From NCBI RefSeq assembly GCF_000760515.2, contig NW_013546345.1:1-36043 (forward strand): a stretch of DNA of 36,043 nucleotides, in the 5' to 3' direction. This DNA comes from Mitosporidium daphniae. Taxonomy: Eukaryota > Microsporidia. The position numbers and the translations under genes are program-made. The notes below the pieces were generated by a model. That model saw only the letters and a program-made list of their open reading frames with translations, did not search any database and had not been told where the DNA came from. Below, piece after piece: positions 10,469 to 28,452 of the stretch (position 1 is its first letter; each line of letters starts with the position of its first letter).

Positions 10469-11246
10469 TTAGAAGAATCTGCGCACGCAATTGTAGCGGG
10501 AGCAGGAAAAACATGTTCTTGGCAGGTATTGGCAAAAGTAGCCAAATGGGCAATCGCAAGGCGGAGAAAAAGGGCACGGAACGCAACCACCCCACCCAAA
10601 TCCGCCTCTATCACCCCATCCAAACCCACCTCTATCGCCCCAACGGGGACGATCAAAATCTCGATTATTAAAATCGTCGTCACGTCTAAAACCGAACCCC
10701 CCTCTAGGTCCAAAATCAGCGACAGAAGCCGACGCATCCTGCTGATATGAGCCACCTTCACCAGAAGGCATTTGACCGTTTCCAAAAGAAGGACTATTGC
10801 TTGGAGTTTGATCATTTCCTAAAGAAACGCCATTACTCTGTGGAAAGCCTCCAAGAATGTTGACAGGTCCTGCACTTTGAGGAGTTGGTGAATTTGACTG
10901 AGATCCCATCTGATTCTGCTGCGGATTGCACGCTCCACCTATAATCACAAATGCAAAAAATACCATTTCCAGGAAAAATGTTTCCACTCGGAATTCCGCT
11001 TCCAGGAAAAATATTTCCACCTGGAATTCCGTTTCCAGATGGTATTGGTCCTTGAGAGGGGGGCAACGGGTTACCAGTGCTAGGTATGGACCCATGACCA
11101 GAGCTAGGCGGTTGCTGATTTTGCGGGGGATATTGTTTTCCAGCATTGGTGGAATATTGGGAAAAAGATGCCCCAATCGCTATCAGCAAGAGGAGAAAAA
11201 TCTGCACAACTTTATAGTGAAGGCGCTGACTGGAGGAGAGATACAT
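10469..11246 (-). CDS. Secreted protein with C-terminal eight-cysteine Opy2-like module (copy 1)
   Basis: Exons (minus) 11246..10964 and 10938..10469, with a 25-nt intron; 250 aa. The order is: signal peptide (VVQIFLLLLIAIGASFS), a Pro/Gly/Ser/Gln-rich low-complexity region with repeats of the GIPSGNIFPGNG type, a second Gly/Ser/Gln region, Arg/Gly/Trp repeats (WGDRGGFGWGDRGGFGWGG), and finally a 32-residue cysteine module with spacing C-x2-C-x5-C-x-C-x5-C-x6-C-x2-C-x4-C. The module shares GYxC, PRTCFSC and flanking residues with the proteins at 17848 and 28156. Its cysteine spacing resembles, from memory, the N-terminal domain of the fungal membrane anchor Opy2. No transmembrane segment follows, so it is probably secreted. 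It diverges from 6PGDH. Confidence 0.85.
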
Positions 11247-11473
11247 GAAACTTGGAGGCCGTTAATAATTTCGGCTTTTATACTTATCCAACTGATACTA
11301 GTGATCATCAGGAGCACCCCAACTAAGAAAAGCAGATATAAAAGGAACAAAAATTTTATTGAATTGGAAATTGTATTAAACTCGGAAGCCCAAAATTTAA
11401 ATTGGCACTCAATTTAGGTCACGTAAGGGGAGCGCAGGGGTAAAGTTTGCCTCAAATAAATTGCAATTTATTG

Positions 11474-13016
11474 ATGGCAAAGAAAGGAGCGGCAGTAGAC
11501 ATTGGAGTGATTGGAATGGCCGTCATGGGCCAAAATCTTGTCCTTAATTTCTTGGACCACAGCTATAACGTGGCAATATTTAATCGTACAAAGTCTAAGG
11601 TCGATCATTTTATGGAGAAATGGTCCACAATGATAGAGAGCGCTCAACCGGGCACTCCAACTCCTTCATCCTCTCTGGAGGAGTTCGTCTCTACAATGGA
11701 AGGGGGGCATAGAAAGATTATATTGATGATTCAGGCGGGAGATGCCATTGATGCTCTATTATCGGAACTAGTGCCACTTCTCTCCCCGGAAGATATTGTT
11801 ATTGATGGAGGCAATTCTCATTACGTCGATACTCAAAGAAGAGCAGCTTCGCTTTCATCGTCCCACAAAATTCGATATGTGGGGTGTGGAATTTCAGGCG
11901 GAGAGCTTGGTGCCAGATATGGTCCGGCATTAATGCCCGGAGGCTCTCTCTGCGCGTGGTAAGTGAGGTCGCCACTTATAAGCTAGGGAAGAAATAAAGG
12001 ACATGCTGCAAAAAATTGCAGCCAAGGGGCCGAAGGGGTACCCATGCTGCGAATGGCTTGGGCCAGATGCCTCTGGTCACTTTGTGAAAATGGTGCACAA
12101 TGGCATCGAATATGCCGATATGCAGATGATTTCGGAAATCTTTCATGTCGCAAAAAACGCCCTAGCGAAAGATACTCCTACAATCGCTTGTTTGTTTCAA
12201 AAGTGGGCTTCTTCTGAATATCTCTCCTCATATTTGATCGAGATCACTGCAAATATTCTTTTCTTTAAGGAAAGCGAGAATGACACTTCTCCCCTTATCT
12301 CTCGCATTCGAGACACTGCTGGTCAGGTAGTTTGGTTTTCTTTTCTTTAGAAAGGAACCGGGAAATGGACCGTCGAGGCGGCCCTTACTTTGGGCGTCCC
12401 AGGAACCCTTTTTTCGGAGGCAGTATTTGCTCGCTCGCTCTCAAGCTCAAAAAAAGAACGTCTTAACGCATCATTGCTCTTTCCAAAAAAAGAGCCGCCA
12501 TTTGACACGCCATTTGGGGACATTTCCCATATTTTGGGGGAAGCTTTGCTTGCCGCAAAGATCATCGCCTATTGCCAAGGATTTTCCTTGCTTATGAAGG
12601 CATCAAAAAACCATGGCTGGTCACTTTCTGGATCAACCATCTCAAAAATATGGCAGGGCGGATGCATTATTCGATCAAAACTGCTTGTTTTTTTTGAGGA
12701 TTTGGATGATCTCCAATTCGAAAATTTGCTGGTATCCAAATGGGCTTCTGAAAGATTGAAGGCTTCGATCGAGTCTCTTCGTACCATAGTCGGTCTTTGC
12801 GTTAGCACAGGTGTCCCCTCGCCTGTGCTGTCTTCGGCGCTCTCGTATTTCGATACAGCTACATGTTCATATCTGCCTGGCGCTGCTCTGATCCAGGCGC
12901 AAAGGGACTACTTTGGCGCGCATCAATACGAACTTGAAGCTACCCCCGGGCTCTTTCACCACACAAACTGGACGGGCTCTGGAGGCTCTGCCCTTTCCTC
13001 AACCTACCAAGTATAA
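11474..13016 (+). CDS. GND1: 6-phosphogluconate dehydrogenase, decarboxylating
   Basis: Exons 11474..11958, 11987..12326 and 12351..13016 (introns 28 and 24 nt); 496 aa, near the fungal length of about 490. It catalyses NADP-dependent oxidative decarboxylation of 6-phosphogluconate to ribulose 5-phosphate in the cytosolic pentose phosphate pathway. Visible marks: Rossmann GMAVMGQNL, IDGGNSHY, GISGGELGARYGPALMPGG, the catalytic Lys in HFVKMVHNGIEYADMQ, KGTGKWT reconstituted exactly across the second intron, SEAVFARSLS, IWQGGCIIRS and AQRDYFGAHQYE. The start is the first in-frame ATG, giving MAKKGAAVDIGVIG. Retention of this gene indicates a working oxidative pentose phosphate branch for NADPH. 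Confidence 0.97.
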
Positions 13017-13143
13017 ATGAGAATTTAGAATAAACACGCACATTATTTTCCGATCTATCGATTGGCAATACAGTGATCGATAGCAACAAACAAACGCTGC
13101 ATAGATGGCAACCGTTAAAGGTATAACACTCGGAAATTGGTGC

Positions 13144-13160
13144 AAATTTTTAATTTTAAT
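13144..13160 (+). promoter_or_regulatory. AAATTT-type signal before the SGS gene
   Basis: AAATTTTTAATTTTAAT immediately precedes the start codon at 13163. Similar strings precede the starts of the Snu66-like, FKBP, Pab2, FHA and Rrb1 genes. AAATTT-like upstream signals are described in microsporidia. The role here is inferred. Confidence 0.4.
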
Positions 13161-13162
13161 TG

Positions 13163-13444
13163 ATGAAGTATCCGTCCTCGGCGAGAAACCCGGTCGATTG
13201 GGATGCCATTACCACATCCAGCGACGAAGAGAGCAGCGGAGCCAAGCAAGAAAAAGGAGAAGATCAGCTTAAAAATTTGTTCCAAAAGATATATGACCAG
13301 GGCACAGATGACACCAGACGGGCAATGATCAAGTCGTTGCAAGAGTCCGGCGGCACATGCCTATCGACCAACTGGAAGGATGTTGGATCGGCTCCGGTCA
13401 AGCCGTCGCCGCCAGAAGGTTGTGAAGCCAGAAAATTCGACTAG
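13163..13444 (+). CDS. Stand-alone SGS-domain protein (Sgt1 C-terminus-like)
   Basis: 93 aa, single exon from ATG 13163. Almost the whole protein is an SGS domain as found at the end of Sgt1: YPSSARNPVDWDAI, an acidic stretch, LKNLFQKIYDQGTDDTRRAMIKS, and LQESGGTCLSTNWKDVG. The TPR and CS domains of Sgt1 are missing, and the 146 nt upstream up to 6PGDH cannot encode a CS domain. In full-length Sgt1 the SGS part binds leucine-rich-repeat clients and Hsc70 and assists Hsp90. What an SGS-only protein does is unknown. An AAATTTTTAATTTTAATT stretch lies directly before the start. Confidence 0.88.
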   Translation: MKYPSSARNPVDWDAITTSSDEESSGAKQEKGEDQLKNLFQKIYDQGTDDTRRAMIKSLQESGGTCLSTNWKDVGSAPVKPSPPEGCEARKFD

Positions 13445-13463
13445 ATAGACGCTAAACCGCGAT

Positions 13464-13483
13464 TAAATTTTTAATTTTTAATT
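13464..13483 (+). promoter_or_regulatory. AAATTT-type signal before the Snu66-like gene
   Basis: ATTAAATTTTTAATTTTTAA lies about 10 nt before ATG 13491, in a 46-nt spacer that must contain both the end of the SGS transcript and the start of the next gene. Confidence 0.4.
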
Positions 13484-13490
13484 TACTGCC

Positions 13491-13940
13491 ATGGACGAGC
13501 CGTTGGTTTCACGGGGCGTTGCCTCCACACTCCGTCTGCTTATGGATCGGGGAGTCCTCCGTAGTGAATACGACCAAAAGCCGCCGTCCAAAAAAATAGA
13601 ATACAAGGACGAGCATGGACGATCGCTGACACCCAAGGAAGCCTTTAAGCTACTCTCGCACAAGTTCCATGGAAAGGCGCCTGGAAAACTAAAGGTGGAA
13701 AAGCTCTTGAAAAAGATTCAGACGGAAAAGGCTGTACTCGCAAAGCAGGTTGCCTCAATACCATCTACAAATGTCGAAATGATGGAAAAGGCAAGAATGA
13801 GCCAGGGGGCCGCCCATATTGTCGTTGCTAATAGCTCGATGATGTCTACCGCCACACGCTCCCACAAGCCTATCAATCGCAATAAAAAGGAAGCCAAGGC
13901 CGCAGTCCCAAAGAAGAAACTTCCTTTTGGCATGGTTTAG
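13491..13940 (+). CDS. Snu66/SART1 C-terminal domain protein
   Basis: 149 aa, single exon. It matches the end of SART1/Snu66, a U4/U6.U5 tri-snRNP protein: RGVASTLRLL, then YKDEHGRSLTPKEAFKLL and SHKFHGKAPGKLKVEKLLKK, with a basic tail ending KKKLPFGMV. Family members are usually 580-800 residues. Here the ATG sits just before the conserved block, and no upstream exon is possible because the SGS gene ends 46 nt away. The long N-terminal region that contacts other tri-snRNP proteins is therefore gone. This fits a reduced spliceosome in a genome with very short introns. Confidence 0.88.
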   Translation: MDEPLVSRGVASTLRLLMDRGVLRSEYDQKPPSKKIEYKDEHGRSLTPKEAFKLLSHKFHGKAPGKLKVEKLLKKIQTEKAVLAKQVASIPSTNVEMMEKARMSQGAAHIVVANSSMMSTATRSHKPINRNKKEAKAAVPKKKLPFGMV

Positions 13941-14080
13941 GGTTGGGAATGCGCAAGATTAAATTTGTAAATTTTCGATGAGAAATAATTTGAGGTTAAA
14001 TTCTTTTGTAATTGTCTCAACATACAACAAATGGGCTTCGGTTTGCTAATTGAAATATTTGATCAACAACCGGATTAGCG

Positions 14081-14902
14081 ATGGCATACATGCAAGATCC
14101 ATGCGAAAACCCTTATAAAAAGGCCAAAAAGCCGTTCGACGAGTTTATCGATTGGGGCGGTGCCTCCTCATCTGGGGCAACCACTCCAGGGTCGTCTTCC
14201 TCGGGTACGGGAACACCCAACTCTTTTTCTGGCCAAGATTCCCGTCAAATTTCGCCATTAGCATCCCCTTCAAACATGTACAGTGCCATTCCCGGACCAT
14301 ATTCTGATATATTTCTCTCTAATACCACCAATAATTTTCACGCAAGTAAATCCGTGCTCGAGGGCGATGATTCGTCTTCGCAAGGCGCCACATTGCCTTC
14401 GGATCCCAACTTCAGCTCGCAAATCCCCACCATTGTGCATCACAATACAGATCTAGATGCATCATTTCCATACATAGTGTCTCCTTTGAAAGGGCCATCC
14501 GAACATCATGTGTCAGAGGATGTGGCTCCTCCTCAGCAGGTGACGCTTTTTCCGCTTATTTCCAACGTATACACGCCACTAATTTATTATCCACCCACGG
14601 TAAAGAGAGCGCCAGCTTGTCCTCCTTTGCTACCTGTTTCTCAAAGAAATCCTGGCATCAAACGCGCTCATCCGTGGGATGGGCTGAGGCTGAAGGCGGT
14701 CAAAAATATCGAGCTTCAGGCACTTTCTCTGATTCGGAGCTGGGTCTTCTATAAGCAGGGAAAGAAGAAAGAATTCCCATTGCCAGTGGAGGTAGAAATT
14801 CCCATCGAAAAGGCCGACGGTAATTGCTTTGAAGACACGATTTGCATTGCCGACCCGGATCTCTATGCCCGGCTTGTGGATCTCGAGCAAAAGAACCGAT
14901 GA
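14081..14902 (+). CDS. Unrecognised protein with Ser/Pro-rich N-terminus
   Basis: 273 aa, single exon, function not recognised. Residues 1-160 are Ser/Thr/Pro/Gly-rich and probably disordered, opening with a small basic patch (NPYKKAKKPF). Residues about 165-273 look folded: a proline-rich stretch (YYPPTVKRAPACPPLLPV), then GLRLKAVKNIELQALSLIRS, an alternating FPLPVEVEIPIEK segment and an acidic C-terminal helix (DPDLYARLVDLEQKNR). There is no signal peptide or membrane segment. Codon use and spacing match its neighbours, so I take it as real. It lies between a spliceosomal gene and a CTD-kinase gene, but nothing links it to them functionally. Confidence 0.7.
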   Translation: MAYMQDPCENPYKKAKKPFDEFIDWGGASSSGATTPGSSSSGTGTPNSFSGQDSRQISPLASPSNMYSAIPGPYSDIFLSNTTNNFHASKSVLEGDDSSSQGATLPSDPNFSSQIPTIVHHNTDLDASFPYIVSPLKGPSEHHVSEDVAPPQQVTLFPLISNVYTPLIYYPPTVKRAPACPPLLPVSQRNPGIKRAHPWDGLRLKAVKNIELQALSLIRSWVFYKQGKKKEFPLPVEVEIPIEKADGNCFEDTICIADPDLYARLVDLEQKNR

Positions 14903-15015
14903 ATAAACAATACACCGATTTTAAGCACACGGTCCCAAGTGGCAACGTTGGAGATTTATGCGTGTATTAGGAAACTGTACAAAGTTGACACAGATGCAAA
15001 ACCTTAATGACAGCT

Positions 15016-17785
15016 CTACGATTTGCCTCCCTCTAATGAGGTTTCACTTGCGTTCCCATTTCGTCGGGTCCGATCGAAACGGTATGAAGGTCGGTAGTAA
15101 CTCCCAGATTCATAATGATGGCCATGTGGTTCTGGATGGCGATCGTGCTCGCGATGGCTAAAATCCCGAAATCCGCCTCTACGGTGTCGCTGATAATAGT
15201 GGTCGGGTGGTGGCGGTCTTTCTCTTTGATCCCAATCATCCGGAGCAGTCATGCGATACGGACGGTACTGGCGGAAATCCTCAGAGCGATCATCTTTAAA
15301 ACGATGATGATGATGATGCTCATGATGATGATGATGATGATTGTTGTTCTGATGGTAGGAGGAAAGGGGAGTTGGGCGGCGGTTCAGGTTATACTCAAAG
15401 GGAGAATAGCTCACCGCCGAAGATGATCGATGGCCAGAGTATGTTCGTGGTGAGGTGGATGTTTCGATTCCATCCATAGGGCGATGTGTTACGTTTGGTA
15501 GATCCTCTGTTTTCTCTCGATTGAGAATGGCAGAATTATGCTTTGTAGATACAGAATCACACGGCTGCGGTGACGACATTTTCTCGTCTGGTTTGACAGG
15601 TGGTCCAGAAGAGTATTGACGTGTAAAGGTAGCGGAGATAGAGACAGAGGAGGATGCAGGTGCAGCTGCAGCTGCAGCTGCTGACTCGACTGCCCCAGCA
15701 GCAGCGACAGCTGCATTCGTAGCATCGCGACGACGCTTTGCCAGCTCATGATAGGAGCATCCAGAAAAATGAGGCAATTCAGCGGTAGTCGCCGTCAGAG
15801 GCAGGGCTGTAGTAAATGCCGGATGCTCCAAGGCTTCCTTTGCCGATATTCTTGCATCCGGATCGATACTGAGCAGACGATGTACAAGATCAAGCATCTG
15901 GGCATCGCCAATCCGACTCTCATCAAGTGGATGCAACGGCTTTGCTTGATGCTCAGAAAACAAATTAGGAACTTTGGAGGAGTCAGGAAGATTGGCTAAA
16001 CTGCGCATTCCAGGCCGAGGCCAGCCAATGGTGTCAAAAATCAAAGTCAACTGATGCAGTTCAGACGTGCCCTGAAAGAGAGGCTGCCGTAAAAAAAGCT
16101 CTGCAACGATGCAACCAACACCCCACATATCAACTGCCGTTGTGTAATGTTGAGCGCCAAGCAACAGCTCTGGCGGCCGATACCATCTTGTGACAACGCC
16201 TGGCGTCATCGATGCAGCACGATGGGGGTCGAACGTCCTGGAAAGGCCAAAGTCGGCAATCTTTACCTCCCCTCGATTCCCGACAAGGATATTTGCGCCT
16301 AGGGTTAGGGAATCAAATTAAAAGAAAACACGCATTGCAGAACACAGGTCGGAGACGAAACAAAAAGAGGTCAAAATACGATATCCAGACTTACTTTTGA
16401 TGTCGCGATGCAGCAAGTTTTTTGAATGTACATAGGCAACACCTTGAAGCAGTTGTTTCGCATAGTACTTGATTTGGGGCACATTGAACCGTATGTTTGG
16501 TGCATCTAGAAGGCCAACCAGGTCATGCTCCACAAACGGGAAAACAATGAAAAAAGTCGGCGGGCCTTGTGAACTTGCCGTAGAGAGCGCAAGTTCCTGA
16601 ATGGAAATGACATTTTGATGGTTCATACGCTTAAGGATCCTTATTTCCCTCAAAGATGTAATTGGAAACTAAACATAAGCTCGTTGCTAGATACCCCTTC
16701 GCCATTAGGCATTGGAAGGATGCGCTTCAGTGCCACTAGGCGCCCAGTGGCTCGATGACGTGCGCGGTGCACCTCGCCAAATGTTCCTTCACCAACCTAC
16801 CGGAAATAAAAACGAAATCAAAAGACTATGGTGCGGAGGCAAAAGAAAGATGGATTACCTTGTCCAAAAAGACATAATCATCTACCGGTGAAATGCCTTC
16901 AAACTTGTGGTTGACACCGTAATAACTTTGTAGCACCATGGGCCCAAATGTTCCATATGGAATGGCTTCCTTAGCAGGAACCCCGGCCTTTGCAGATGGC
17001 TGCCTTAAAGGCTGTGCTGCTTCTGTTCGTTTTGTCGCCTTAGATAATGGAGCAGACATCATTGGCGAAGAGGTCGTGGTTTCAAATGGGTCAAAGTACG
17101 AAGTAGCCACTTGCATTGAGGAAGTAGATGCGGAATGAACAGGTGTCTTTGCCTTTGGCTGCTTCGCATCTTGAAAAGTTTCTTTCTTGCTAAAAATGGG
17201 CTCTTGGCCTTTTATATCCCCTGCTCCAGTAAAGCTTCGCTTTGTTAAAGACTCTCCCTTTGATGCAGAAATTGGAGCAGGCCCATTCTTTGGGCAACAC
17301 AATGAAAAGGGCTGTTCTTCAACTGCAGGTAGCATTTTCTTCATCTCATTTTTAATAGGTGGGATTGTTGTTATGGAGGATTCTCTGTTTATATCATATG
17401 ATGTCCTTTTGGACTCAAGATTCTCAGCATCAACCCCAACAATGTCTATCGGTGAGGAGGGCCTCTTTTTTTTTATCTGCGGATAATCTGGCGAAAATGC
17501 CATTTTGAGATCCTTTTTAGAGAACAAATTTTCCGCCGGTTCAATGGAATGCACCAGCTTGCTAAAGACGGTGGAAATGCTAGAGTCCTTTGGTTCGTGT
17601 ATCTTTCTCGTTTTGCGCAAAAGCAAATCCCTGAGTTCCTGCAAAAGATGCTTAGAAACAGATAACGAGACAAAATCGGAAAACTTTCTTGTGCGCCGCT
17701 CATCTCTGATAGATGATGGAGCCGAATTCTTTTCCTCCCCGTCGGTTGAGGAAAAAGAGGGGCACGACGACGAGAGTGCCGCCAT
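15016..17785 (-). CDS. Cyclin-dependent kinase of the CDK9/Bur1-Ctk1 type with His-rich tail
   Basis: Exons (minus) 17785..16859, 16796..16695, 16668..16395 and 16298..15016 (introns 62, 26 and 96 nt); 861 aa. Residues 1-290 are a Ser/Lys-rich extension. The kinase domain runs from about 300 to 590: VGEGTFGEV at 310, VALKRIL, GFPITSLREIRIL (PITALRE-type C-helix), HRDIKSANILV at 430-440, DFGLS at 450, VVTRWYRPPELLLG, and ending SIDPDARISAKEALEHPAF. This set is typical of transcriptional CDKs that phosphorylate the Pol II CTD. CDK9/Bur1 and CDK12/Ctk1 cannot be separated with confidence. The C-terminal 270 residues are low-complexity, with an 11-His cluster split by one Glu at about 745-765 and Arg/Asp/Tyr-rich sequence after it. 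The cyclin partner is not in this window. Confidence 0.92.
15303..15342 (-). repeat. CAT trinucleotide run encoding poly-His in the CDK
   Basis: On the plus strand this is a run of ATG/GAT triplets. On the coding strand it reads His6-Glu-His5 preceded by Asn3. It creates spurious Met-rich open frames on the other strand. Confidence 0.85.
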
Positions 17786-17788
17786 TCC

Positions 17789-17802
17789 AACTAAAAATTA
17801 AT
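17789..17802 (-). promoter_or_regulatory. ATTAATTTTTAGTT just upstream of the CDK start
   Basis: The same 14-mer is found at 31697-31710, five bases before the SmD1 start. Its TTTTTAG looks like the 3' splice sites of this genome, so it could be the end of a 5'-UTR intron rather than a promoter. Confidence 0.35.
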
Positions 17803-17847
17803 TCAATTTGTAAATTGCAATTTTATTTTCAATGATTGCAGATCAAC

Positions 17848-18105
17848 CTAAACGGCAAAAGGTCCCCCCCTCCTTCCATTGTCATCTCCACGCTCACCAG
17901 GCCCAAAGCGCGAAAGTCGCTGGCAGAATCGTCTGGGACAGCTAAAACAAGACCTTGGTATATATCTGCACACATAGCCAAAGGGGCAGTTGCACGGTGG
18001 TATGAAGAGTGGACATTGAACACATCGTGTTGGCCCAAATTGGTCAGTCCCGCAATATGAAAAGGCAAGTGCTAAAAGAGCAATAAAATAAAGGAGAGCT
18101 TTCAT
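17848..18105 (-). CDS. Small secreted protein with eight-cysteine Opy2-like module (copy 2)
   Basis: 85 aa, single exon. A clean signal peptide (MKALLYFIALLALAFSYC) is followed almost at once by the module with spacing C-x2-C-x6-C-x-C-x5-C-x6-C-x2-C-x4-C. It includes CPFGYVCRYIPRSCFSC, nearly identical to the same stretch of the 10469-11246 protein. A charged Gly/Arg/Asp-rich tail of about 20 residues follows. This is the minimal form of the family: no low-complexity region and no membrane anchor. It is transcribed away from the CAP protein gene across a 203-nt spacer that carries TTAGGGTT at 18160-18167. Confidence 0.9.
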   Translation of the reverse strand: MKALLYFIALLALAFSYCGTDQFGPTRCVQCPLFIPPCNCPFGYVCRYIPRSCFSCPRRFCQRLSRFGPGERGDDNGRRGGPFAV

Positions 18106-18159
18106 TTTATATGTGCCCAGAATGTATGTTTCCCGTTATATAGAAATCGATCAAATATA

Positions 18160-18167
18160 TTAGGGTT
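18160..18167 (+). promoter_or_regulatory. TTAGGGTT element in a divergent spacer
   Basis: One of four copies of the 8-mer in intergenic positions. It lies between cysteine-rich copy 2 (minus) and the CAP gene (plus). Function inferred. Confidence 0.28.
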
Positions 18168-18308
18168 TTCCATTTGTAATTTTTGCTGATCATCAATAGA
18201 CCGGATAATTGCGAAAGAATCACCAAATCTTGTTTTGAAGCATCCACATGTGATATCAGTGGCTTTATTAAGGGCGTTTACACCAAACGAGACAATGCGG
18301 ACTTTTAG

Positions 18309-19138
18309 ATGCTGCTGATGTTCCTTGTGTACATTGTTGCATTTCTTTTACCCAAAAAAGCATACAACCTTTCTGCAAGAATCCCATTTGACGATGAAGC
18401 TCCGATATTGCAGTTTGGCCCTAGTCAACCTTGGAAATGGAATGAAAGATCTCTTATTTTGCAGGGAGATACTATGCCTCCTACGCCACGACAGATTCCG
18501 ATTCAAAGAAATGATATTCCAGATTCGATTCCTGCAAAAGGCACGCTATGGACGGGTGAAAATGGCGTGTGGATAATAAGGGGCTCTGAGCAGAACACTC
18601 CGGATCAAAGTAAAGGAACAAGTCTCTCTTTAAGACAACCACAGAGTGAGCAAAAAAGAAATTCCGATCCGCTCTACTTGAGCCAAATTACGCTAACGTT
18701 TCAGCTTCTGGCGCGTGTTAACGGGGAAAGAACATCTAGAGGATTGAAGCCGCTCTGTGCAAATAAGTACACATTCGCATTGATGACATAACTAGGAAAC
18801 TCGTGTCATCATCCACGCAGCATTCCGTGTTGATGGCCAAAATGGGTGAAATGAGCCACCAGCTTCCGGGAGGACCTTCGTTAGGAGAAAGGGTCACCGA
18901 GGCAGGATTTGAATGGAGATCAATTGCAGAAAATATTGCAGCAAAAGTATCCGATGTAGATGATGTGATGCAGGCATGGATGAACTCGCCAGGTATATCA
19001 AGTCTACATTTGATTTTAGGGCATCGACAAAACATCCTTGGGTCTTTTGAATATTTCGGTGCAGCACAGGTAAGCCAGTTTTGGACACAGGACTTTGCAA
19101 CAAGCTCAAATCAAGGCACCACAAACGAGTGCATGTAA
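18309..19138 (+). CDS. Secreted CAP/SCP (PR-1/Pry-like) protein
   Basis: Exons 18309..18766, 18796..18992 and 19020..19138 (introns 29 and 27 nt); 257 aa. The first 18-20 residues (MLLMFLVYIVAFLLPKKAY) are a signal peptide. Residues about 20-135 are a Pro/Gln/Ser-rich stretch I do not recognise. The CAP domain begins at about 136: LLARVNGERTSRGLKPLCANKKL, then MSHQL, ERVTEAGFEWRSIAENIAA, WMNSPGHRQNIL and FWTQDFA. His of MSH, Glu of AEN and His of GHR match the CAP cavity residues. Family members (yeast Pry1-3) bind sterols and fatty acids in the extracellular space. The second intron is in frame without a stop, but removing it restores the canonical NSPGHRQNIL. Confidence 0.9.
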
Positions 19139-19329: not shown

Positions 19330-20522
19330 ATGCCAGCGTTATCAGCAGAACAAGTTGAACGTTTGAGGGTAGTCGATTTACGAGAAGAACTCTCCAGCAG
19401 GGGCCTCCAAACTTCTGGTTTAAAAAAAGATCTTGTAGCAAGGCTTTTGGAAGCCTTGCAGGGCGAAGGATCTAGTCAAGATGGTGCATTGAGCCCAACC
19501 AGCAAAGGGGAAGATCTATCAGCACAAAGTTCTCCACAACAACAACCCTCTGGACAAATATCAGAGCAACCGGAAAGCCTTATTATTCGCAAACCCAAAA
19601 AAAAGGCACACGCAAGTGGTGATGGTGAGCATGATTTTTTGCAAGAAAAGCTGAAAATGGACCATACTCCTTCATCAGAAAAAATACTTGCGCCAGTTAT
19701 AGATACCATTGCACAGGATTCAAACATGGATATGGTAGATGTTGCACCCAGTGCAAACATACATGCGGTAGATGTTGCACCCAGTGCAAACATACATACG
19801 GTGTTTGAAGAAAGCACGCAAGAGCCTTTATCCACTGGCCCAACAGAGCCAGTTTCCATCGATACCCAGCCAATGCGCGTAGAGTGCGATCAGATGGCTC
19901 AGGCAGAAGATCTGGTCAAAGAATCTCAGCTCGAAGCTCCAACTCAAAGCTCCGACAAGGAAAATCAACAAATGGTGCACCACATTAAATCTGATGTGGC
20001 CGAGTCGAGAAACCCTCTTGCAATATTGTTTGAGGTCAACACAAAACTGGGTTCAGGTTTGAGAATATATCGCCCTAATGGTAGATTACCAATATATTTC
20101 AGAAAAGTCTCTTTCCATCACCAGGCTTCTTCCGCCATTTAGCGCGGCAGGGCTACAGCATCTGTTGGAAAGGTATGGAGAAGTTATGGACTTCTACCTC
20201 AATTTTGCAAAGTCTCAATGCTTTGTCAAGGTTTTTTCTGCCGTAATATTTTTAGTATTCCACTGAACAATCAGCAACGTATGCACTATCGATGCTGCAA
20301 AACCAAAGATGGCCCGAAAAACATGGCGAACTCCTATTTGTGACCTCGGTGCCCTTGGAGCAGATCCTTCAAACCATCGAACAGGAGTCAAAAATCACGG
20401 GTGCCTCCATGCAAAAGGGCTTCAATCGTGGCCAAAAGCGCACATTTGAGGAGATAGACCACGCGGAGGGCTATGCTGAGCGCGGTGAAAGAAAATATCA
20501 CCCTCAGACTATGCTGTTGTAA
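19330..20522 (+). CDS. Acinus-like SAP and RRM protein (ASAP complex)
   Basis: Exons 19330..20080, 20103..20230 and 20256..20522 (introns 22 and 25 nt); 381 aa. A SAP domain lies at residues about 8-42 (LRVVDLREELSSRGLQTSGLKKDLVARLLEAL). A 200-residue Gln/Ser/Glu-rich linker contains two 33-nt tandem units. From about 252 there is an RRM of the Acinus type: SLSITRLLPPFSAAGLQHLL, RYGEVMDFYL, KSQCFVKYSTEQSATYAL. Acinus joins RNPS1 and SAP18 in the ASAP/PSAP complexes at the exon junction. SAP plus C-terminal RRM is the animal Acinus order, but the protein is far shorter than human Acinus. The start is the ATG at 19330 (MPALSAEQ). Confidence 0.85.
19735..19800 (+). repeat. Two 33-nt tandem units in the Acinus linker
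   Basis: 19735-19767 and 19768-19800 encode VDVAPSANIHA and VDVAPSANIHT. They differ at only one or two bases, which points to a recent in-frame duplication. Confidence 0.85.
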
Positions 20523-20556
20523 ATTTTTTAAAATTAAATTCATTTTTGAAAAATTA

Positions 20557-22131
20557 ATGCCTTCCAAAAGGCAGCAAGGATCCGAAGATGAGGGGTCTTC
20601 CTTCGAAGACATATTCGATGACATTGAGGATGAAGACACCATATTTGATCCTTCTTTGCTTGATGGTTGCGATACCGAAGAGGACAGCGACCAACAAGAC
20701 GTTAATATGATGCATTCGAAGAAAGCGATTCCTTTATCTTCGATCGGAAAATTTTCCGATCTGAAGATTGAGGAGCAAGAACAGGACGAGCAGGAAGACA
20801 CTACTCCTAGGCGGACATATTTGCCATCAATGCATGTTGACAAGGACAACCAATTGGATGTAAATCCATCCGTATACAATTTGTTCCGGGAACTTACTAT
20901 CGAATGGCCCTGTCTTTCTTTCGACTTTTTGTCAACGGATGTAAATGAAAATGGCAATCTCTCTGTTTCAATAGTCGCTGGCAGTCAAGCCGCTTCGTCT
21001 TCAAAGAACAGACTGTATTACATCAAGGCTTCTAATCTCAAAGTGCTAAAGAAAAAGCATTCCATTGACTCTGGATATCTCTCTTCGTCATCAGATAACT
21101 CGTCCAGCGATGAGGACGAACACCAAGTAAATGTGAAATGCAAAGCGTCATCACCGGCTCTTTCCTCTATCTCTGTTCCGCACCAAGGCTGTGTGAATCG
21201 GGTTCGAGTCTCACGAGCAACAGGCATACCAGCATATGTCGCCTCTTGGTCGGATTTGGGGAAAATTTATATATGGAACTCTGAGGATCATCTTAGGCAG
21301 CTTGATGATCCTGTTAATTCTTTGAAATATTCATTTATTGGAGAAGATCTCAAGAAAAGGCATAAAGCGGTCAAAAACAACAGTACAGCCTCATTGGCCG
21401 TTATGACCGACCATGGCACTGATGAGGGATATGCCCTTGCGTGGTCAATAAAAGGGACACCCGGTCGAATCCTTTCCGGAGACTGCAGTGGCAAAATCGT
21501 CATGTCGCAATTGGGGGAAGCAACTTTTACGCCACTTGGAAAGCTCCTGAACCCCTCCTGTTCTGTCGAAGATTTATCTTGGAGTACGATTGAGGCTGAA
21601 ATTTTTGCCTCCGCCGATACTTCTGGGATGGTGAAGATTTGGGATACCAGACAGGCATTGAGCCCTGTTGCCACAATACATGCCAGCGCATGTGATGTTA
21701 ATGTTATAAGCTGGAATCCGTCATCAACCTTCCTTCTTGCCAGTGGCGCCGATGATGGTGAGTGGGCAACTTGGGATCTTCGGAAAGTATTTACTGCATC
21801 GCCAAGCAAATCGGACCCGCTCGTTTCGTTCAGGTGGCATCAAGCGCCAATCTCATCGATAGAATGGCATCCATGCGAACCATCTGTCATCACGGTCTCT
21901 GGATCCGACGATCAGTTGACAATCTGGGATTTGGCTGTGGAGTGTGAATCGTCGATGGATAGCCAACCTGAGGATGGTGTGCCTGCTCAGCTGATGTTTA
22001 TCCACCAAGGACAACGGGATATGAAGGAGGCCCATTGGGCCCCAGCGCAGACAAGGCATGCGGCTGCAAATGGCGTCATAGTGTCCACCTCTGCAACGGG
22101 ATTTCATATTTTTAAGCCGTTTAATATTTAA
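20557..22131 (+). CDS. Rrb1/GRWD1 WD40 protein (uL3 chaperone)
   Basis: 524 aa, single exon from ATG 20557. An acidic N-terminus (about 1-95) precedes the conserved VYNLFRELTIEWPCLSFDFL, which marks the Rrb1/GRWD1/RBAP48 group. Several WD repeats follow: HQGCVNRVRVS..YVASWSDLGKIYIWN, YALAWSIKGTPGRILSGDCSGKI, SVEDLSWS..ASADTSGMVKIWDTR, DVNVISWNPSSTFLLASGADDGEWATWDLR and ISSIEWHPCEPSVITVSGSDDQLTIWDL. The family escorts newly made ribosomal protein uL3 to the nucleolus for 60S assembly. The insert between the first strands (about 165-205) is Ser/Asp-rich. Confidence 0.93.
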   Translation: MPSKRQQGSEDEGSSFEDIFDDIEDEDTIFDPSLLDGCDTEEDSDQQDVNMMHSKKAIPLSSIGKFSDLKIEEQEQDEQEDTTPRRTYLPSMHVDKDNQLDVNPSVYNLFRELTIEWPCLSFDFLSTDVNENGNLSVSIVAGSQAASSSKNRLYYIKASNLKVLKKKHSIDSGYLSSSSDNSSSDEDEHQVNVKCKASSPALSSISVPHQGCVNRVRVSRATGIPAYVASWSDLGKIYIWNSEDHLRQLDDPVNSLKYSFIGEDLKKRHKAVKNNSTASLAVMTDHGTDEGYALAWSIKGTPGRILSGDCSGKIVMSQLGEATFTPLGKLLNPSCSVEDLSWSTIEAEIFASADTSGMVKIWDTRQALSPVATIHASACDVNVISWNPSSTFLLASGADDGEWATWDLRKVFTASPSKSDPLVSFRWHQAPISSIEWHPCEPSVITVSGSDDQLTIWDLAVECESSMDSQPEDGVPAQLMFIHQGQRDMKEAHWAPAQTRHAAANGVIVSTSATGFHIFKPFNI

Positions 22132-22463
22132 TAATACATTTATGACTCATTAGCATGCCGTCCGATTTACCTGCTTCCGGCCCCTTGTTTGATTGATTTT
22201 TGCATTGATCTGGTGATGTGCATGCTAATTGGCCAAGATGGCCGATTAGATTGCTGAAGACCTCATTAATGTTACAATGTAATGCAACTCACACATTGTG
22301 ATGAGTTTTCAAATTAATCACTCAAATTAGGGTTTGGTTACCAGCCACAATTCATCCCGCCAATGAGAGCTCGACTGGTCAGCTACTGAACAATACTTTG
22401 ACCCATTCTTTTATATTTTACCAAAAGACAAATAAGAGGACCTGCCTTTCTTCTTCTTATTCA
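22132..22463. other. 332-nt spacer with inverted repeat, before casein kinase 1
   Basis: No gene is visible. It holds a perfect 10-nt inverted repeat (ATTAGCATGC at 22149-22158 and GCATGCTAAT at 22220-22229), a TTAGGGTT at 22327-22334 and a pyrimidine-rich run just before the start codon. These are plausible promoter elements for the kinase gene only, since the upstream neighbour points the same way. Confidence 0.4.
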
Positions 22464-24183
22464 ATGTCAAGCAACCCACAACCAGCAGTAGCCGATCCTT
22501 TGGTACCTTCCTCGGCTAAGGGAGAATCCCCAGCGCGCCCTCCCAAGCCACTGGGAAAGCCCCTCAATCCCGATACACTCCAGCCTCATAAGGCAATGGT
22601 TCCTGTCCATCCCAATGATGCGGGATCAGATGCACAGCAGTATTCCTCATCTAGACCCTCTGTGGTCGGGCAGCATTTTCGAGTTGGCAAGAAAATCGGT
22701 GAAGGATCCTTTGGGACCATTTATGAAGGTAACCATGCATCACTACGGAACTATTGGCTTCATTCAACCTTAAAATTGAAACTAATTTTTAGGATTCAAC
22801 ATCATTGACAGTTATGCGGTGGCAATAAAATTTGAGCCCAGAAAAAGCGAGGCTCCTCAATTAAGAGACGAGTACAAATCTTACAAGATCCTTGCGGGAA
22901 CGGGTATTGATGGCGTTTTGATTGTTTTAGAAGGAATACCCAGGGTTTTCTATTATGGACAAGAGGGAACCTACAATTGTCTTGTGATGGAGCTTCTTGG
23001 ACATTCTCTTGAGTATCTGTTTGACTGCTGTTCTAGACATTTTACAATCCAGTCGGTTGCATTGCTGGCAATTCAAATGGTGCGACCTTTTTCTTACTTT
23101 AGATCACACGAGTGCAATCTATTCATGAGCATAACCTCATTTACCGGGACATCAAGCCAGACAACTTTCTTATCGGGAGGAAGGATAAATCGCACATCAT
23201 TTACATTGTCGATTTTGGGATGGCAAAGCATTATCGAGACCCAAAGACCCGAGTCCACATTCCATATAGAGAACGAAAAAGCCTTTCTGGAACGGCCAGA
23301 TATATGTCCATCAACACACATCTTGGCAGGGAGCAGAGCAGAAGAGATGATCTGGAGGCATTAGGAAATGTTCTACTCTATTTTCTCAGGGGGTCGCTTC
23401 CATGGCAAGGCCTTAAAGCACCTACCAACAAATTAAAGTATGAGAAAATCGGGGAGAAAAAGCAACAAGTATCCATTCTCGAGCTGTGCCTGAGATTTCC
23501 AGAAGAATTTTCAGCCTATATTTACTACGTTAGGAAGCTCGGGTTTGAAGATACTCCCGATTATGGATACTTGAAGGGCTTGTTCATTGACCTTGCGTCT
23601 CGTCTTGAGGTCCAGAATCCCTTTGTTTTTGATTGGACCCTCTCTGCTTCATCAAGCTTTGTCGTTGCCGAAGCGGCCGCATCTATCGGATACTCTACCC
23701 GGCTGGGGATATTTAGTGCTACTGGCCAGGCTATACGTAGATTGAAGCCTGGAGGTAAAAAGGGAAACTTTTTCAATTTTTGTAGATTCTCAACTACTTC
23801 TAAATAGCTCTTTTGATCAGAAAAACGAGAATTTATCGGCCGAAGCGAGGAAAGCCTCTACGGCTTCCATGCAGCCTGCTCTTCCCTCTTCGCTGTATGC
23901 GACAGGCGAATCCGGTGGAACTCCGGCCACCAAGAGTGAGCCACAAAGCGAAACCGACCACACCCAACCAAAGTCTTCTGTTGTTTTGTTTGCAGGATAT
24001 CGGCAACAGGAGGGCAGGGAAAAAGAGGCCGAACGAAAAGCAGACGAAGAGGGCATCTCATCAAAGCCCTTCAAACGCAAAAAAAGGGGCTTTTTTTACC
24101 AGCTATTTTCTTCTGTTTGGTGTTGCTTTCATTCCCCTTCATTTCATAGAAGTACATATAAATTTGATAAATTTACTGCTTAG
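22464..24183 (+). CDS. Casein kinase 1, membrane-associated (Yck/CK1-gamma) type
   Basis: Exons 22464..22728, 22793..22903, 22931..23079, 23103..23754 and 23786..24183 (introns 64, 27, 23 and 31 nt); 524 aa. After a Pro/Ser-rich N-terminus come [54 protein letters not shown] (restored across intron 2), [23 protein letters not shown], and [20 protein letters not shown] with the CK1-specific substrate-binding loop. The fifth exon adds a 132-residue tail, Ser/Lys-rich and ending near a WCCF dicysteine, which fits palmitoylation as in Yck1/2 and CK1-gamma. Without the last intron the protein would stop at 23807. The long open frame beyond favours splicing. Confidence 0.92.
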
Positions 24184-24306
24184 ACTGATGAGGGGGACCA
24201 TGCTTGAATATGCTCTTTTTCTACCATCTCTCATAAGGCGCCCACATTCACTGTAAATTTAATATATCTTGGCTTGGTAGAGCAACCAATAAAATTATAT
24301 TTATAA

Positions 24307-25491
24307 TTAAGATCCACGCTCTGCAGCTTCCTTTCTCCGACCGAGAAGGTATGAGTCTATCAAAATAATACAGAAGAAAGCCAATCCAAAATACGAAGAC
24401 AGCGAAAACATCTTCCAGCAGCTCGCTGGGGATGAATAATTGGCCCAATTTACTTGCCAGAGAAGAAAAGGGAGCAGTCCGCCATTTAGAAGGCCAAAAT
24501 AAACAAGCGATTGGCCATTGATCCAGCCAGCGATGTTGAATGAAAATATTGCCAAGGCAGAGAAAAGGGACAGCACTTTCGTTGGATTGGGCCCAAACTT
24601 GATGGCAGTTGATTTGACGCCAATTTTTACGTCGTCTTTGAGATCTTGGTATGCATAGATTGTATCATAAACCAATGTCCAGAGAATCCCGCCAAAGTAT
24701 AAAGGCAACATCGTTGGCAACATCGGATACAGCGCAGAAATTGAAAGTGGATCGGCCACGCACGCCAAAGGCAGCAAAACTGCAGGGTAGCCGACCAGAG
24801 CCCCCCAATTGAATGCAACGCCCAACATTAGCTGTGGATAATAAGTAATCCTCTTCATGAGTGGATAAATTATACATGGAAGAACAGCTGCAAATGAGAT
24901 AGCTGCTGCTAGAGGTGGCAACTGGGAAAGAATTCCCAATCCTCCAACGCATAGGACCCCCATAAATTTATATGCAGTAGCAATGGAAAGAGTTCCCGCA
25001 GCTAATGGGCGACCGGAGGTTCTCTCAACAAGCGAATCTATCTTACGGTCGTATATATCATTAAGGACACACCCAGCCGTTCTCATAAACACCGATCCGA
25101 AAAGGAACATTACTAAAAGCTTGGGATTGCAAAACACCAGTGTCGGTGTGGTTGAAAGCATCGAGTACGAGCCGAATTGAGTGCTCCAAGCGCAAGGAAG
25201 ATACAGCAGCCAAATCCCGGTAGGTTTAGTTATTCTTGACAAGTGCACCAAATTCGCCCACATTTTATTGTCCCGAGATGCGGAACTGTCCATCAATGGC
25301 TTCCGGGTTTCAGATGGAAAATTGACGGTTGAATATGCAGCATTCGCCTTATTGGCCACTAAATGGTGGGTGCGGTTGATTTTCGGAATTCTGGTCAAAT
25401 TGCTTGCATTATGCCACATTTTTTTTTGGGGGGCAAAATTTCTTCTCATGCCAAGGAAGGCCAAAGCATTGAATGAAAGAAGACACTGCAT
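24307..25491 (-). CDS. COQ2: 4-hydroxybenzoate polyprenyltransferase, mitochondrial
   Basis: 394 aa, single exon from ATG 25491. A basic, Ser/Asn-rich N-terminus of about 70 residues fits a mitochondrial presequence. The UbiA-type membrane core holds the first aspartate motif NDIYDRKID at about 144-152 and the second YAYQDLKDD, with 7-9 hydrophobic helices. Nearby GRPLAAG and KRITYYPQLMLG are COQ2 marks. It attaches the polyprenyl chain to 4-hydroxybenzoate in ubiquinone synthesis at the inner membrane. Its presence implies a quinone-using respiratory chain, unlike canonical microsporidia. Confidence 0.95.
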   Translation of the reverse strand: MQCLLSFNALAFLGMRRNFAPQKKMWHNASNLTRIPKINRTHHLVANKANAAYSTVNFPSETRKPLMDSSASRDNKMWANLVHLSRITKPTGIWLLYLPCAWSTQFGSYSMLSTTPTLVFCNPKLLVMFLFGSVFMRTAGCVLNDIYDRKIDSLVERTSGRPLAAGTLSIATAYKFMGVLCVGGLGILSQLPPLAAAISFAAVLPCIIYPLMKRITYYPQLMLGVAFNWGALVGYPAVLLPLACVADPLSISALYPMLPTMLPLYFGGILWTLVYDTIYAYQDLKDDVKIGVKSTAIKFGPNPTKVLSLFSALAIFSFNIAGWINGQSLVYFGLLNGGLLPFLLWQVNWANYSSPASCWKMFSLSSYFGLAFFCIILIDSYLLGRRKEAAERGS

Positions 25492-25623
25492 TGTGAAAAA
25501 CAGCAATAATGGCTGGAAATTGCATTAAATTACAAGTTTACAATTTGATGAGAATGGCCCCATTTCATTTTATCTAAATTTGAAAGTTTCATTTGCTTTC
25601 GTTTGCCCTTTTGACGTTATCAA

Positions 25624-27856
25624 ATGGATACCAACAAAGACGAATGCGATGTTTATGGCGAACCGTCATCAATTTCAAGCTATGACGATAACCTATATTG
25701 GGAAGATATCCCCGATGCCTTGGGTGAAGACAAGCCGTCATCGTCGTTTTGGAGCAGTCCCCCAGAGACGTCCAAAGACTGGTATTCAAATGACTCTTCC
25801 GACGAGTATTCGGGCGATCAGCTGCAAAAGCCCTATGCCATCATTTCACAATGTATGCTCCATCCGCTTATTGTAGACGACCAAGAAGGCATGTCTTCTA
25901 CCCCTTTGAGAGACGATGACGATGATGATGATGTTATTGATGACTCCTCGATATCTGGGGCCGATTGCAAAATATACACAGAATCGATATCGTATTTTGA
26001 AAAATTTATCAAATATATGGACAGCGATGTGTTTTTGAACAAGTAGCCATCAATTGTTACACGCTTACTTTTAGGTTGTATTTGGCAAAAAATCTGATTC
26101 CCCTCGCCAAGGAGCTGCAAAAGGAGGAAGATATTTTGCTTGTGCTTTCACACATTGACACGTTTTATATGGACTCTTCGGAGCTTATCAGACTGGAGTC
26201 GGTTTCGCATCTGTACGAATTTGGGGTGATCATCCTAAGGAAAGCCATTTCTCTCTCTAATGCCAACAGCCACAATGACATCATCGCTGCGATTGTGCAA
26301 ACCATATTTCCTCTAGGCCTTAATTTATTTTTGGACACATCTGATATTATTGTGGAGTGCGCCTGTGAAAACGTTTCGCTGCTGCTGCTTCAGTTTGACC
26401 TGAATTTGTTCTCGACATACCTGATGCCGCTCATTGATGAACTGTCGATCTCCATACATGAGGAGAACCTACTTGTAGCCTCGAAATTGATAGGCAATGT
26501 GTGCAAGCAATTTAAATTGAAAAAAAGTGAGGGAAAATCCTTTTTTTTGGACGTTGTTGAGGAAAAATTCATCCCAGTCATAAGGTCCTTTTCCACAAAG
26601 GCCTTCAAGGTCAGGGAGTCTGTGATTGAGACGATCTGTCAGCTTGCATCCATCATGGCTCCCGATAAAGCCGAACAAGACCTTTTGTTTATCTTTTCTC
26701 GCTTGTGCGATGACTCTTTGTGGAATGTTCGAAAATCTGCTGCAATCCATCTGCCAGCCTTTTCTTCCGTCCTAGGCAAGGAGTGCAAGATAAACAACAT
26801 CCTTCCAATTGTCCAAAGTCTGCTTAATGATGTTTCTAGACTCGTTCGCATGGCTATAAATAATAATCTTGGCCCGCTGATTTATTCGTTCCGCAACTGT
26901 GGAGCTATTCCAGAGCCCTTGATTTCTGCCTTTGTTGATTGTATCCCGGTCCCTGGATTTAACTCCTCGTCATTTAGAGGGGCCGAAACGGATACCATTG
27001 CTATCTCGTGTGCTTTCAACCTTCCAGCGGTTGTCTTTTCAATCGGCCCCGAAAATTGGAACCGCTATTTGAAAGGGCCATTTTCTTCGCTTGCAAAGCA
27101 CTGCGATTGGAGGATTAGGCGTCCCATTTCTTTTGCGCTCTATGAGATCGCAAAATTGCTGCCACCCTCCTCAATTACAGAAGACATTGTTCCAATTTTT
27201 TCAATCTACATCAATGACATTGATCAAGTAAAGCTTGGCGTTCTTCAAAATTTGTCCAATCTTTTTTCGATATTCACCTATGCCCAGTCGAAGCCTTTTC
27301 TTTCCAACCTTATTTTGCTAGTTGAAGATTCGGGGATAAACTGGAAATACAGAGCCTTCATTGCAAGGTATGGTCACCTTGAATTGATCTTTTAGCCAAT
27401 TGGGACGGTTTCTTCATATATTTCATTATTCGGAAATATATTCTTTCTTTTTGCCATTGTTTACTAGATTTTCGATAGACAAAATTTCGGCAGTCCGCAT
27501 CGCCGTAGCGGATTCAGTATGCCACACAATTTTAACCGCCATAGACTGCGTCTTTTATTTCATATTTCATTGCAAACAACTTGGACGATAATCTTGAGGC
27601 CTTTTTCAGGGCCATTGCCTTCATGGCCAAAGATAACAGATATCAGGTCAGAATTCAGTTTGCGAAAATCGCTTCAAAAATGGTGGAGCATCCGCTTTGG
27701 TCAAATGCCACTTTTAGAATGTATTTTATAAAAGAATGGCTGGAAAGTCTCCGAGGCCTTCAGAGCGACCCGGTCAAGAATGTCCAGCTATTTTACGAGA
27801 ATACTCTTAAAGAGAAAATTTGCAATTTTCAGACAGAACCCCTTTGCCCCAAGTAG
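25624..27856 (+). CDS. PPP4R1-like HEAT-repeat phosphatase regulator
   Basis: Exons 25624..26042, 26075..27367, 27396..27516 and 27545..27856 (introns 32, 28 and 28 nt); 714 aa. A 130-residue acidic N-terminus precedes HEAT-type helices to the end. The block 'SCAFNLPAVVFSIGPENWNRYL' to 'SLAKHCDWRIRRPISFALYEIA', then DIVPIFSIYINDIDQVKLGVLQNL and NWKYRAFIA, matches the PPP4R1 pattern more than the 15-repeat PP2A A subunit. Such proteins scaffold PP4 or PP2A catalytic subunits. The third intron is the least certain: a 28-nt GTATG..TAG joins AVADS to TASFISYF, and the downstream frame reads sensibly (IQFAKIASKMVEHPLW). Confidence 0.82.
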
Positions 27857-27991
27857 ACGATTCCTATTCTGTAGATAAGTTCGTAATTAAACTTATAGTT
27901 AAACATTGACCAAAATTTAGCATGTTTTGTTCCTGTTGTGAGCTGGTATAAAATAATATATATTTATATTAAAATATCTTCTCAGTCCAAT

Positions 27992-28109
27992 ATCTACGGC
28001 CATACACACTGGAAAACACCGGGTCTCGTCCGATCCCCGAAGTCAAGCCAGTGCTGGCGCAGTCAGTACTATGATGGGTGACCGCATGGGAATACTGCGT
28101 GCTGTAGGT
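27992..28109 (+). rRNA. 5S ribosomal RNA
   Basis: About 118 nt. ATCTAC at the 5' end pairs with GTAGGT at the 3' end. Internal landmarks of eukaryotic 5S are present: CGGCCATAC, AAACACCGGGTCTCGTCCGAT, AAGTCAAGC, and GATGGGTGACC..GGGAATACTG in the C-box/loop E region. It stands alone between protein-coding genes, not in a visible rDNA unit. Confidence 0.95.
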
Positions 28110-28115
28110 TCTGTC

Positions 28116-28120
28116 TTTTT
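28116..28120 (+). terminator. Pol III T-run terminator of the 5S gene
   Basis: Five consecutive T six bases after the end of the 5S stem, as expected for RNA polymerase III termination. Confidence 0.7.
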
Positions 28121-28155
28121 GTGTTTATATATTAACATCCATGCAAATTACGCTT

Positions 28156-28452
28156 TTATTGCTTTTCAACATCACCAAAATCCTTCTCGATCGCCGCATC
28201 ATTGAAAAGTATAGGTCTTGGCGCACAATATGCACGGGGACACGTAAAGCATGTTCTTTTGCTAATCCTACAAACATATCCCCTTATGCAAAATAGATTG
28301 CAGGCCACGATTGTTGGGCAAATAACACAAAAGCGGGATTGAAAGCCAGGCACTTGAGCGAAACTATGCTGTGAAACTGGAATTGACCAATAACAGTTTA
28401 AAAGTGCCGTTAGATAGATGCACAACACAGCCAGGCAAAGATGGATTTTCAT
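28156..28452 (-). CDS. Small secreted protein with eight-cysteine Opy2-like module (copy 3)
   Basis: 98 aa, single exon. Signal peptide MKIHLCLAVLCIYLTALLNC. After about 20 residues comes the module with spacing C-x2-C-x5-C-x3-C-x5-C-x6-C-x2-C-x4-C, sharing RGYVCR, KRTCFTCPR and the terminal AYC with the other two copies. The tail of about 22 residues is acidic and lysine-rich. It is the most divergent of the three (the third gap is 3 rather than 1). The module occupies about residues 42-76. No membrane anchor is seen. Confidence 0.9.
   Translation of the reverse strand: MKIHLCLAVLCIYLTALLNCYWSIPVSQHSFAQVPGFQSRFCVICPTIVACNLFCIRGYVCRISKRTCFTCPRAYCAPRPILFNDAAIEKDFGDVEKQ

What the first reader, a model, noticed from the sequence alone, without database searches (positions are those of the whole stretch)
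10469..28452. Three paralogous small secreted proteins share an eight-cysteine module
The proteins at 10469-11246, 17848-18105 and 28156-28452 (all minus strand) each have a signal peptide and one module with eight Cys, spacing C-x2-C-x(5-6)-C-x(1-3)-C-x5-C-x6-C-x2-C-x4-C, with GYxC and R(T/S)CF(S/T)C constant. Copy 1 adds about 180 residues of Gly/Pro/Ser repeats, copy 2 is nearly bare, and copy 3 is the most divergent. Three members in 36 kb suggest a larger dispersed family. The spacing recalls the Opy2 N-terminal domain (from memory), yet no membrane segment follows, so these look like soluble or wall/spore-coat forms, a possible undescribed secretome family.
Basis: partly seen in the sequence, partly recalled or inferred. 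Interest (0 to 1): 0.8.

Follow-up and report, generated by a model that had tools for sequence, protein, structure and literature searches.

The report
Secreted Opy2-module proteins in Mitosporidium
A water-flea parasite placed among the microsporidia encodes a small family of secreted-looking proteins built on a cysteine module known from the yeast stress-sensing membrane protein Opy2, here without a membrane anchor, and they are candidates for its still unknown surface or spore-wall proteins.

Summary
Three minus-strand genes each encode a signal-peptide-like N-terminus and one eight-cysteine module with the stated spacing. The module is the Pfam Opy2 domain PF09463: all three match the full 35-position profile, and two of three pass the curated cut-off as whole proteins. 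The window belongs to Mitosporidium daphniae: copy 1 is public protein DI09_44p90, 250 aa, spliced through a 25-nt intron. A whole-genome search found four modules: these three plus one on another contig, embedded in Pro-Phe-Pro-Gly repeats. So the family looks small and mostly clustered, not large and dispersed. Two public proteins of unnamed origin are related: P0006 matches copy 3 over nearly its whole length (47%), and P0007 resembles the fourth member in layout. In the modules synonymous differences exceed nonsynonymous ones in 6 of 6 pairs, also without the cysteines. No transmembrane segment follows any module. Best reading: soluble, disulfide-rich extracellular or spore-wall proteins that reuse the Opy2 module. 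Location and partner are inferred. Whether a HOG/SHO1 pathway exists here could not be tested, because the genome search tool stopped answering.

The parts
10469..10938 (-). Copy 1, exon 2: Gly/Pro/Ser-rich linker, GGFGWG twice, C-terminal Opy2 module (module 10487-10585)
   Evidence: identical to the C-terminal part of P0005 = DI09_44p90
10939..10963 (-). 25-nt GT..AG intron of copy 1
   Evidence: removing it gives the public 250-aa protein letter for letter
10964..11246 (-). Copy 1, exon 1: hydrophobic signal-peptide-like N-terminus and Gly/Pro/Ile-rich repeats
17848..18105 (-). Copy 2: 85-aa protein, signal-peptide-like start, Opy2 module 17923-18024, Arg/Gly-rich tail
28156..28452 (-). Copy 3: 98-aa protein, signal-peptide-like start, Opy2 module 28225-28329 with x3 between Cys 3 and Cys 4
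18309..19138 (+). Neighbour: CAP (SCP/PR-1) gene, divergent from copy 2, in at least two exons; own hydrophobic N-terminus
   Evidence: ORFs 18309-18791 and 18833-19138; PF00188, 30.7 bits, on the second ORF; the first ORF has no Pfam match; that the two ORFs are one gene is inferred
27992..28110 (+). 5S rRNA gene that ends 45 nt from the stop of copy 3 and limits its 3' end
   Evidence: 106.9 bits

Best explanation
These are paralogous secreted proteins of Mitosporidium daphniae that carry one Opy2-type eight-cysteine module with no membrane anchor. Shown: module identity, paralogy, protein-level constraint, lack of a transmembrane segment, related layouts in two further public proteins. Inferred: the signal peptide is cleaved, the eight cysteines form four disulfides in the secretory pathway, and the module acts outside the cell as a compact binding or cross-linking knob. 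In members with low-complexity Gly/Pro/Phe arms (copy 1, the C70 copy, P0007) the arms space the knobs within an extracellular layer, most likely spore wall or cell coat; the near-bare forms (copies 2 and 3) would be soluble cappers or ligands of the same layer.
For: Pfam Opy2 over the full profile in all three copies and in P0006, P0007 and the C70 copy, though these three are under the cut-off. The C70 module aligns with copy 2 at 23 of 39 residues, E 3e-11 for that one comparison. In each of six proteins the strongest 19-residue hydrophobic stretch is at the N-terminus, and nothing like a transmembrane helix follows. Little room for a missed membrane exon after two copies: 62 nt from copy 2 to the ATG of the next ORF on the strand (319 aa, no Pfam match), 45 nt from copy 3 to a 5S rRNA gene; for copy 1 and the C70 copy the next ORFs lie 185 and 174 nt away. 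Repeats of 12 nt coding for PFPG flank the module in the C70 copy, and P0007 has a PFP-rich tail. Module codons: pS 0.80-1.01 against pN 0.21-0.33 in 6 of 6 pairs over 27 codons; without the 7 all-cysteine codons pS 0.65-0.89 against pN 0.30-0.47 over 20 codons. An orthology study found none of the polar-tube and spore-wall families it compared in M. daphniae except an aquaporin (PMC13174016, passages), so its wall proteins remain to be found.
Against: No expression, localisation or proteome data. Low-complexity Gly/Pro arms also occur in non-wall secreted proteins. Copies 2 and 3 have no such arms. The structure models were poor (mean pLDDT 53.7 and 62.5), so disulfide pairing is unsupported. 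Codon usage of copies 2 and 3 (-0.01, 0.00) is below all 11 training genes (0.16-0.39) and within the range of 16 shadow ORFs; copy 1 exon 2 and the C70 copy are in between (0.10; 0.14). The coding status of copies 2 and 3 rests on homology and constraint. The authors of PMC13174016 themselves warn that their method may miss divergent orthologues.
Confidence: 0.45

Rival explanations
1. Secreted effectors: the small proteins are released into the Daphnia gut cell and bind host surface or cytoplasmic proteins.
For: Small, cysteine-rich, signal-peptide-bearing, lineage-restricted proteins are typical effector candidates (general knowledge); no relative confirmed in prokaryote or virus collections; a CAP gene lies next to copy 2.
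Against: The module is constrained rather than fast-evolving, the yeast relative works on the fungal surface, and the repeats of copy 1 and the C70 copy look structural. No host-target evidence.
Confidence: 0.25
2. Soluble Opy2-like ligands or decoys that bind the mucin-type partner of an Msb2/Hkr1-like receptor of the parasite itself and tune a MAPK pathway.
For: In yeast the cysteine-rich domain of Opy2 binds the HMH domains of Hkr1 and Msb2 (PMC13233613, introduction passage); the same module is present here.
Against: No membrane Opy2 among the 4 matches in the genome. Whether the genome holds Ste50 could not be tested; Sho1 and Msb2 were not searched for.
Confidence: 0.15
3. Convergent eight-cysteine modules that are not homologous to Opy2.
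For: Short modules of 32-35 residues dominated by cysteines can score by spacing alone; copy 1, P0006, P0007 and the C70 copy are below the Pfam whole-protein cut-off.
Against: PF09463 is the only Pfam family reported for the module at E up to 10 (the tool drops most matches above about 0.1) and it is matched end to end; copy 2 scores 30.5 bits, 8 over the cut-off. The host is placed in Fungi.
Confidence: 0.1

Closest known systems
Opy2 extracellular cysteine-rich domain (Pfam PF09463; yeast Opy2, HOG pathway)
   Same: Full-length profile match with all eight cysteines; outside-facing location expected from the signal-peptide-like start.
   Different: No transmembrane helix, hence no cytoplasmic Ste50-binding tail; four copies in one genome; Gly/Pro/Phe arms in some members in place of the membrane anchor.
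Microsporidian spore-wall and polar-tube proteins
   Same: Secreted, low-complexity Gly/Pro arms and cysteine cross-linking potential (general resemblance, recalled).
   Different: No sequence relationship was shown or specifically tested here; a published orthology study reports none of its compared families in M. daphniae except an aquaporin (PMC13174016, passages).

Membership tests
Opy2 domain family (PF09463) | Profile match over the whole 35-position domain at the curated cut-off | tested here: met
   Copies 2 and 3 pass (30.5 and 25.1 against 22.1 bits); copy 1 misses by 0.3 bit as ORF (21.8) and 0.6 as spliced protein (21.5), but scores 25.0 in the genome search. The C70 copy (13.3, or 16.2 in the genome search, E 0.1), P0006 (21.5) and P0007 (17.9) are under the cut-off and join through similarity to the others.
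Opy2 domain family (PF09463) | Eight cysteines in the domain | tested here: met
   8 of 8 cysteines in all four M. daphniae copies and in both further proteins
Opy2 membrane anchor protein (the HOG-pathway protein itself) | Single transmembrane helix after the domain | tested here: not met
   In six of six proteins the most hydrophobic window after the N-terminal one (0.52 to 1.71, highest in copy 3) overlaps the module and is raised by its cysteines; none lies after the module. No dedicated transmembrane predictor was available.
Opy2 membrane anchor protein (the HOG-pathway protein itself) | Cytoplasmic tail binding Ste50 | tested here: not met
   Inferred from the absence of a membrane helix: proteins end shortly after the module or in low-complexity arms; Ste50 binding itself was not tested
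Opy2 membrane anchor protein (the HOG-pathway protein itself) | Domain binds the HMH domain of Msb2/Hkr1 | not testable with these tools
   Needs a binding assay; the one pathway part I asked for in this genome (Ste50 SAM) did not complete
Microsporidian spore-wall proteins | Location in the spore wall | not testable with these tools
   Needs spore proteomics or immuno-electron microscopy

The most novel reading that the evidence does not exclude
The earliest-branching microsporidia built part of their spore wall or host-contact layer from a fungal osmosensor module freed from its membrane anchor: a secreted Opy2-module family, largely unannotated, that fills the place of the spore-wall proteins not found in M. 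daphniae.
Probability: 0.2. Interest if true: 0.65.

Novelty: new variant of a known kind. Interest (0 to 1): 0.4.

Why it matters
Mitosporidium daphniae sits near the origin of microsporidia (PMC7017984, passage), and its wall and invasion proteins are not recognised by homology to those of later species (PMC13174016, passage). A small, testable set of secreted proteins with a recognisable module gives concrete candidates. It also shows the Opy2 module outside a membrane receptor, which bears on whether the module was first an extracellular binding unit and only later part of the HOG pathway, or was detached from it.

Tried and rejected
Single-protein search of the large protein database with copy 2 (84 aa, without its first Met): no candidate. 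Searches of solved structures gave only insignificant matches: one with copy 2 (HiPIP, E 0.21) and three with alignment A3 (RING finger protein 31 at 0.045, RhTx toxin at 0.09, an antibody chain at 0.14); rejected. Two structure models were too weak to search with (mean pLDDT 53.7 and 62.5), so no fold search was run. Relatives in viral and prokaryote contigs: pattern matches in 1, 179 and 56 stretches, none confirmed by tblastn. Codon-usage scoring did not separate copies 2 and 3 from shadow ORFs, so it is not support; the copy 1 value printed was read in the wrong frame and is replaced by 0.10 (exon 2) and 0.17 (exon 1). A hydrophobic 77-aa ORF downstream of the C70 copy (L004:1972-2205) was considered as a possible membrane exon and rejected: it has its own ATG 174 nt beyond the stop and precedes an ORF with an aminotransferase match; its own only Pfam row was a weak TFIIE_beta one under the cut-off. 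That it is the N-terminus of serine palmitoyltransferase Lcb1 is recalled, not tested.
Full report
What is there. The three claimed genes are present on the minus strand. Each starts with a hydrophobic N-terminal stretch, as in a signal peptide, and carries one module with eight cysteines. The spacing pattern, set after seeing the copies, occurs 3 times in the six frames of the window and 0 times in 150 first-order Markov versions of it.

Gene structure and organism. Copy 1 spans two frames. Removing a 25-nt GT..AG intron at 10939-10963 gives a 250-aa protein identical to public protein P0005, named as hypothetical protein DI09_44p90 of Mitosporidium daphniae. NCBI taxonomy places this species in Microsporidia incertae sedis. 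Copies 2, 3 and the fourth copy did not turn up in the protein database: one search asked with copy 2 alone, with alignments holding all of them. They are probably missing from the public protein set; the tool's length limits and word filter mean that this is likely, not proven. Small genes missed in microsporidian annotation have a precedent in Encephalitozoon (PMC4589312, passages).

Family. The module is Pfam PF09463, Opy2, matched end to end in all three copies: 21.8, 30.5 and 25.1 bits against a cut-off of 22.1, and no other family was reported at E up to 10 (the tool drops most matches above about 0.1). The Pfam family searched against the whole 4.66 Mb assembly gave 4 matches (lower bound, six frames, no introns; 0 of 14 control genomes matched): the three here and one on contig 70 (16.2 bits, E 0.1, under the cut-off). 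The contig-70 match is weak by the Pfam profile but aligns with copy 2 at 23 of 39 residues with E 3e-11 for that single comparison. Its gene encodes 162 aa: signal-peptide-like start, acidic stretch, Pro-Phe-Pro-Gly repeats, the module, and more such repeats made of 12-nt tandem units. If four genes fell at random, three within 17.9 kb of each other would occur with probability about 0.0002 (simulation; the window was chosen for the cluster, so this is only indicative). That points to local duplication. Within the window the modules are no more alike than with the contig-70 copy (copy 1 shares 19 of 27 fixed positions with copy 2 and with the contig-70 copy), so the duplications are not recent. 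Searches of the genome with P0006 and the contig-70 protein, which could have found more distant members, did not complete.

Relatives. A profile search of 5.8 billion proteins found, besides P0005, P0006 (97 aa; E 1.9e-13; 2.3e-32, where it was itself in the query) and P0007 (143 aa, E 2.7e-6), both from ENA without a name; these were the only hits at E up to 10. P0006 aligns with copy 3 over 94 residues at 47% identity and shares its x3 gap, so it is probably its orthologue in another organism. Its organism is unknown, and a further M. daphniae paralogue outside the held assembly is not excluded. P0007 has an acidic linker before the module and a Pro-Phe-Pro-rich tail after it, like the contig-70 copy; the pair scores only E 2e-5 in a single comparison, the modules agree in 16 of 27 fixed positions, and P0007 lacks the GYxC motif. 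So the shared layout is suggestive, not proof of orthology. Scans of viral contigs and of prokaryote genomes confirmed no relative.

Constraint. Over 27 module codons in fixed register, synonymous differences per site are 0.80-1.01 and nonsynonymous 0.21-0.33 in 6 of 6 pairs of the four copies. Seven of these codons are cysteines, which the pattern itself demanded; without them the values are 0.65-0.89 and 0.30-0.47 over 20 codons, still lower for nonsynonymous change in 6 of 6 pairs. The copies are therefore old duplicates whose protein sequence is held. Codon usage did not help: copies 2 and 3 score below the 11 training genes and inside the range of 16 shadow frames.

No membrane anchor. 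The best hydrophobic stretch of each of the six proteins is N-terminal, and the next best overlaps the module and is raised by its cysteines. Copy 2 ends 62 nt before the ATG of the next ORF and copy 3 ends 45 nt from a 5S rRNA gene. Copy 1 and the contig-70 copy have 185 and 174 nt before the next listed ORFs. By this test these are not Opy2 membrane anchors.

Function. In yeast, the cysteine-rich domain of Opy2 binds the HMH domains of the mucins Hkr1 and Msb2, and Opy2 connects to Ste11 through Ste50 (PMC13233613, passages; also PMC9428294, passages; the primary paper PMC4719420 was not held). An anchorless module can keep the extracellular binding part alone. The Gly/Pro/Phe arms of copy 1, the contig-70 copy and P0007 suggest a structural role in an extracellular layer. 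A recent comparison found no orthologue of the polar-tube and spore-wall families it retained in M. daphniae except an aquaporin, with a warning that divergent orthologues may be missed (PMC13174016, passages), so the wall composition of this species is open. I rate a secreted, soluble Opy2-module family as about 0.9 likely, and the wall or coat role as about 0.45. An effector role (0.25) and a ligand or decoy role in the parasite's own signalling (0.15) remain open. The genome search for Ste50 did not complete.

Novelty. The module is known; the anchorless, repeat-armed, multi-copy secreted form is a variant that I did not see described in the listings of ten paper searches (PF09463 is named in 0 papers of that library). 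For most listed papers I saw titles and starts of abstracts only; passages were read in seven calls on six papers. These searches cover open-licence papers only, and the domain architectures of all Opy2 proteins in fungi could not be surveyed here.

Noticed in passing
window 18309-19138 +: A CAP (SCP/PR-1) secreted-protein gene lies divergently 203 nt from copy 2, possibly sharing its promoter region.
   Followed up: partly
window 5688-7688 +: GH18 chitinase-like gene with a hydrophobic N-terminus; the match covers residues 227-652 against a 317-position profile (120 bits), so it carries an insertion of roughly 110 residues.
   Followed up: no
window 10939-10963 -: Intron of only 25 nt, confirmed by the public protein.
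   Followed up: yes
window 27992-28110 +: 5S rRNA gene embedded among protein genes.
   Followed up: no
window 34210-35145 + and 24307-25491 -: Citrate synthase and a UbiA-family prenyltransferase, in keeping with a retained mitochondrion in this microsporidian relative (inference).
   Followed up: no
L004:1309-1797 +: Fourth family member on contig 70 with 12-nt tandem repeats coding for Pro-Phe-Pro-Gly on both sides of the module.
   Followed up: yes
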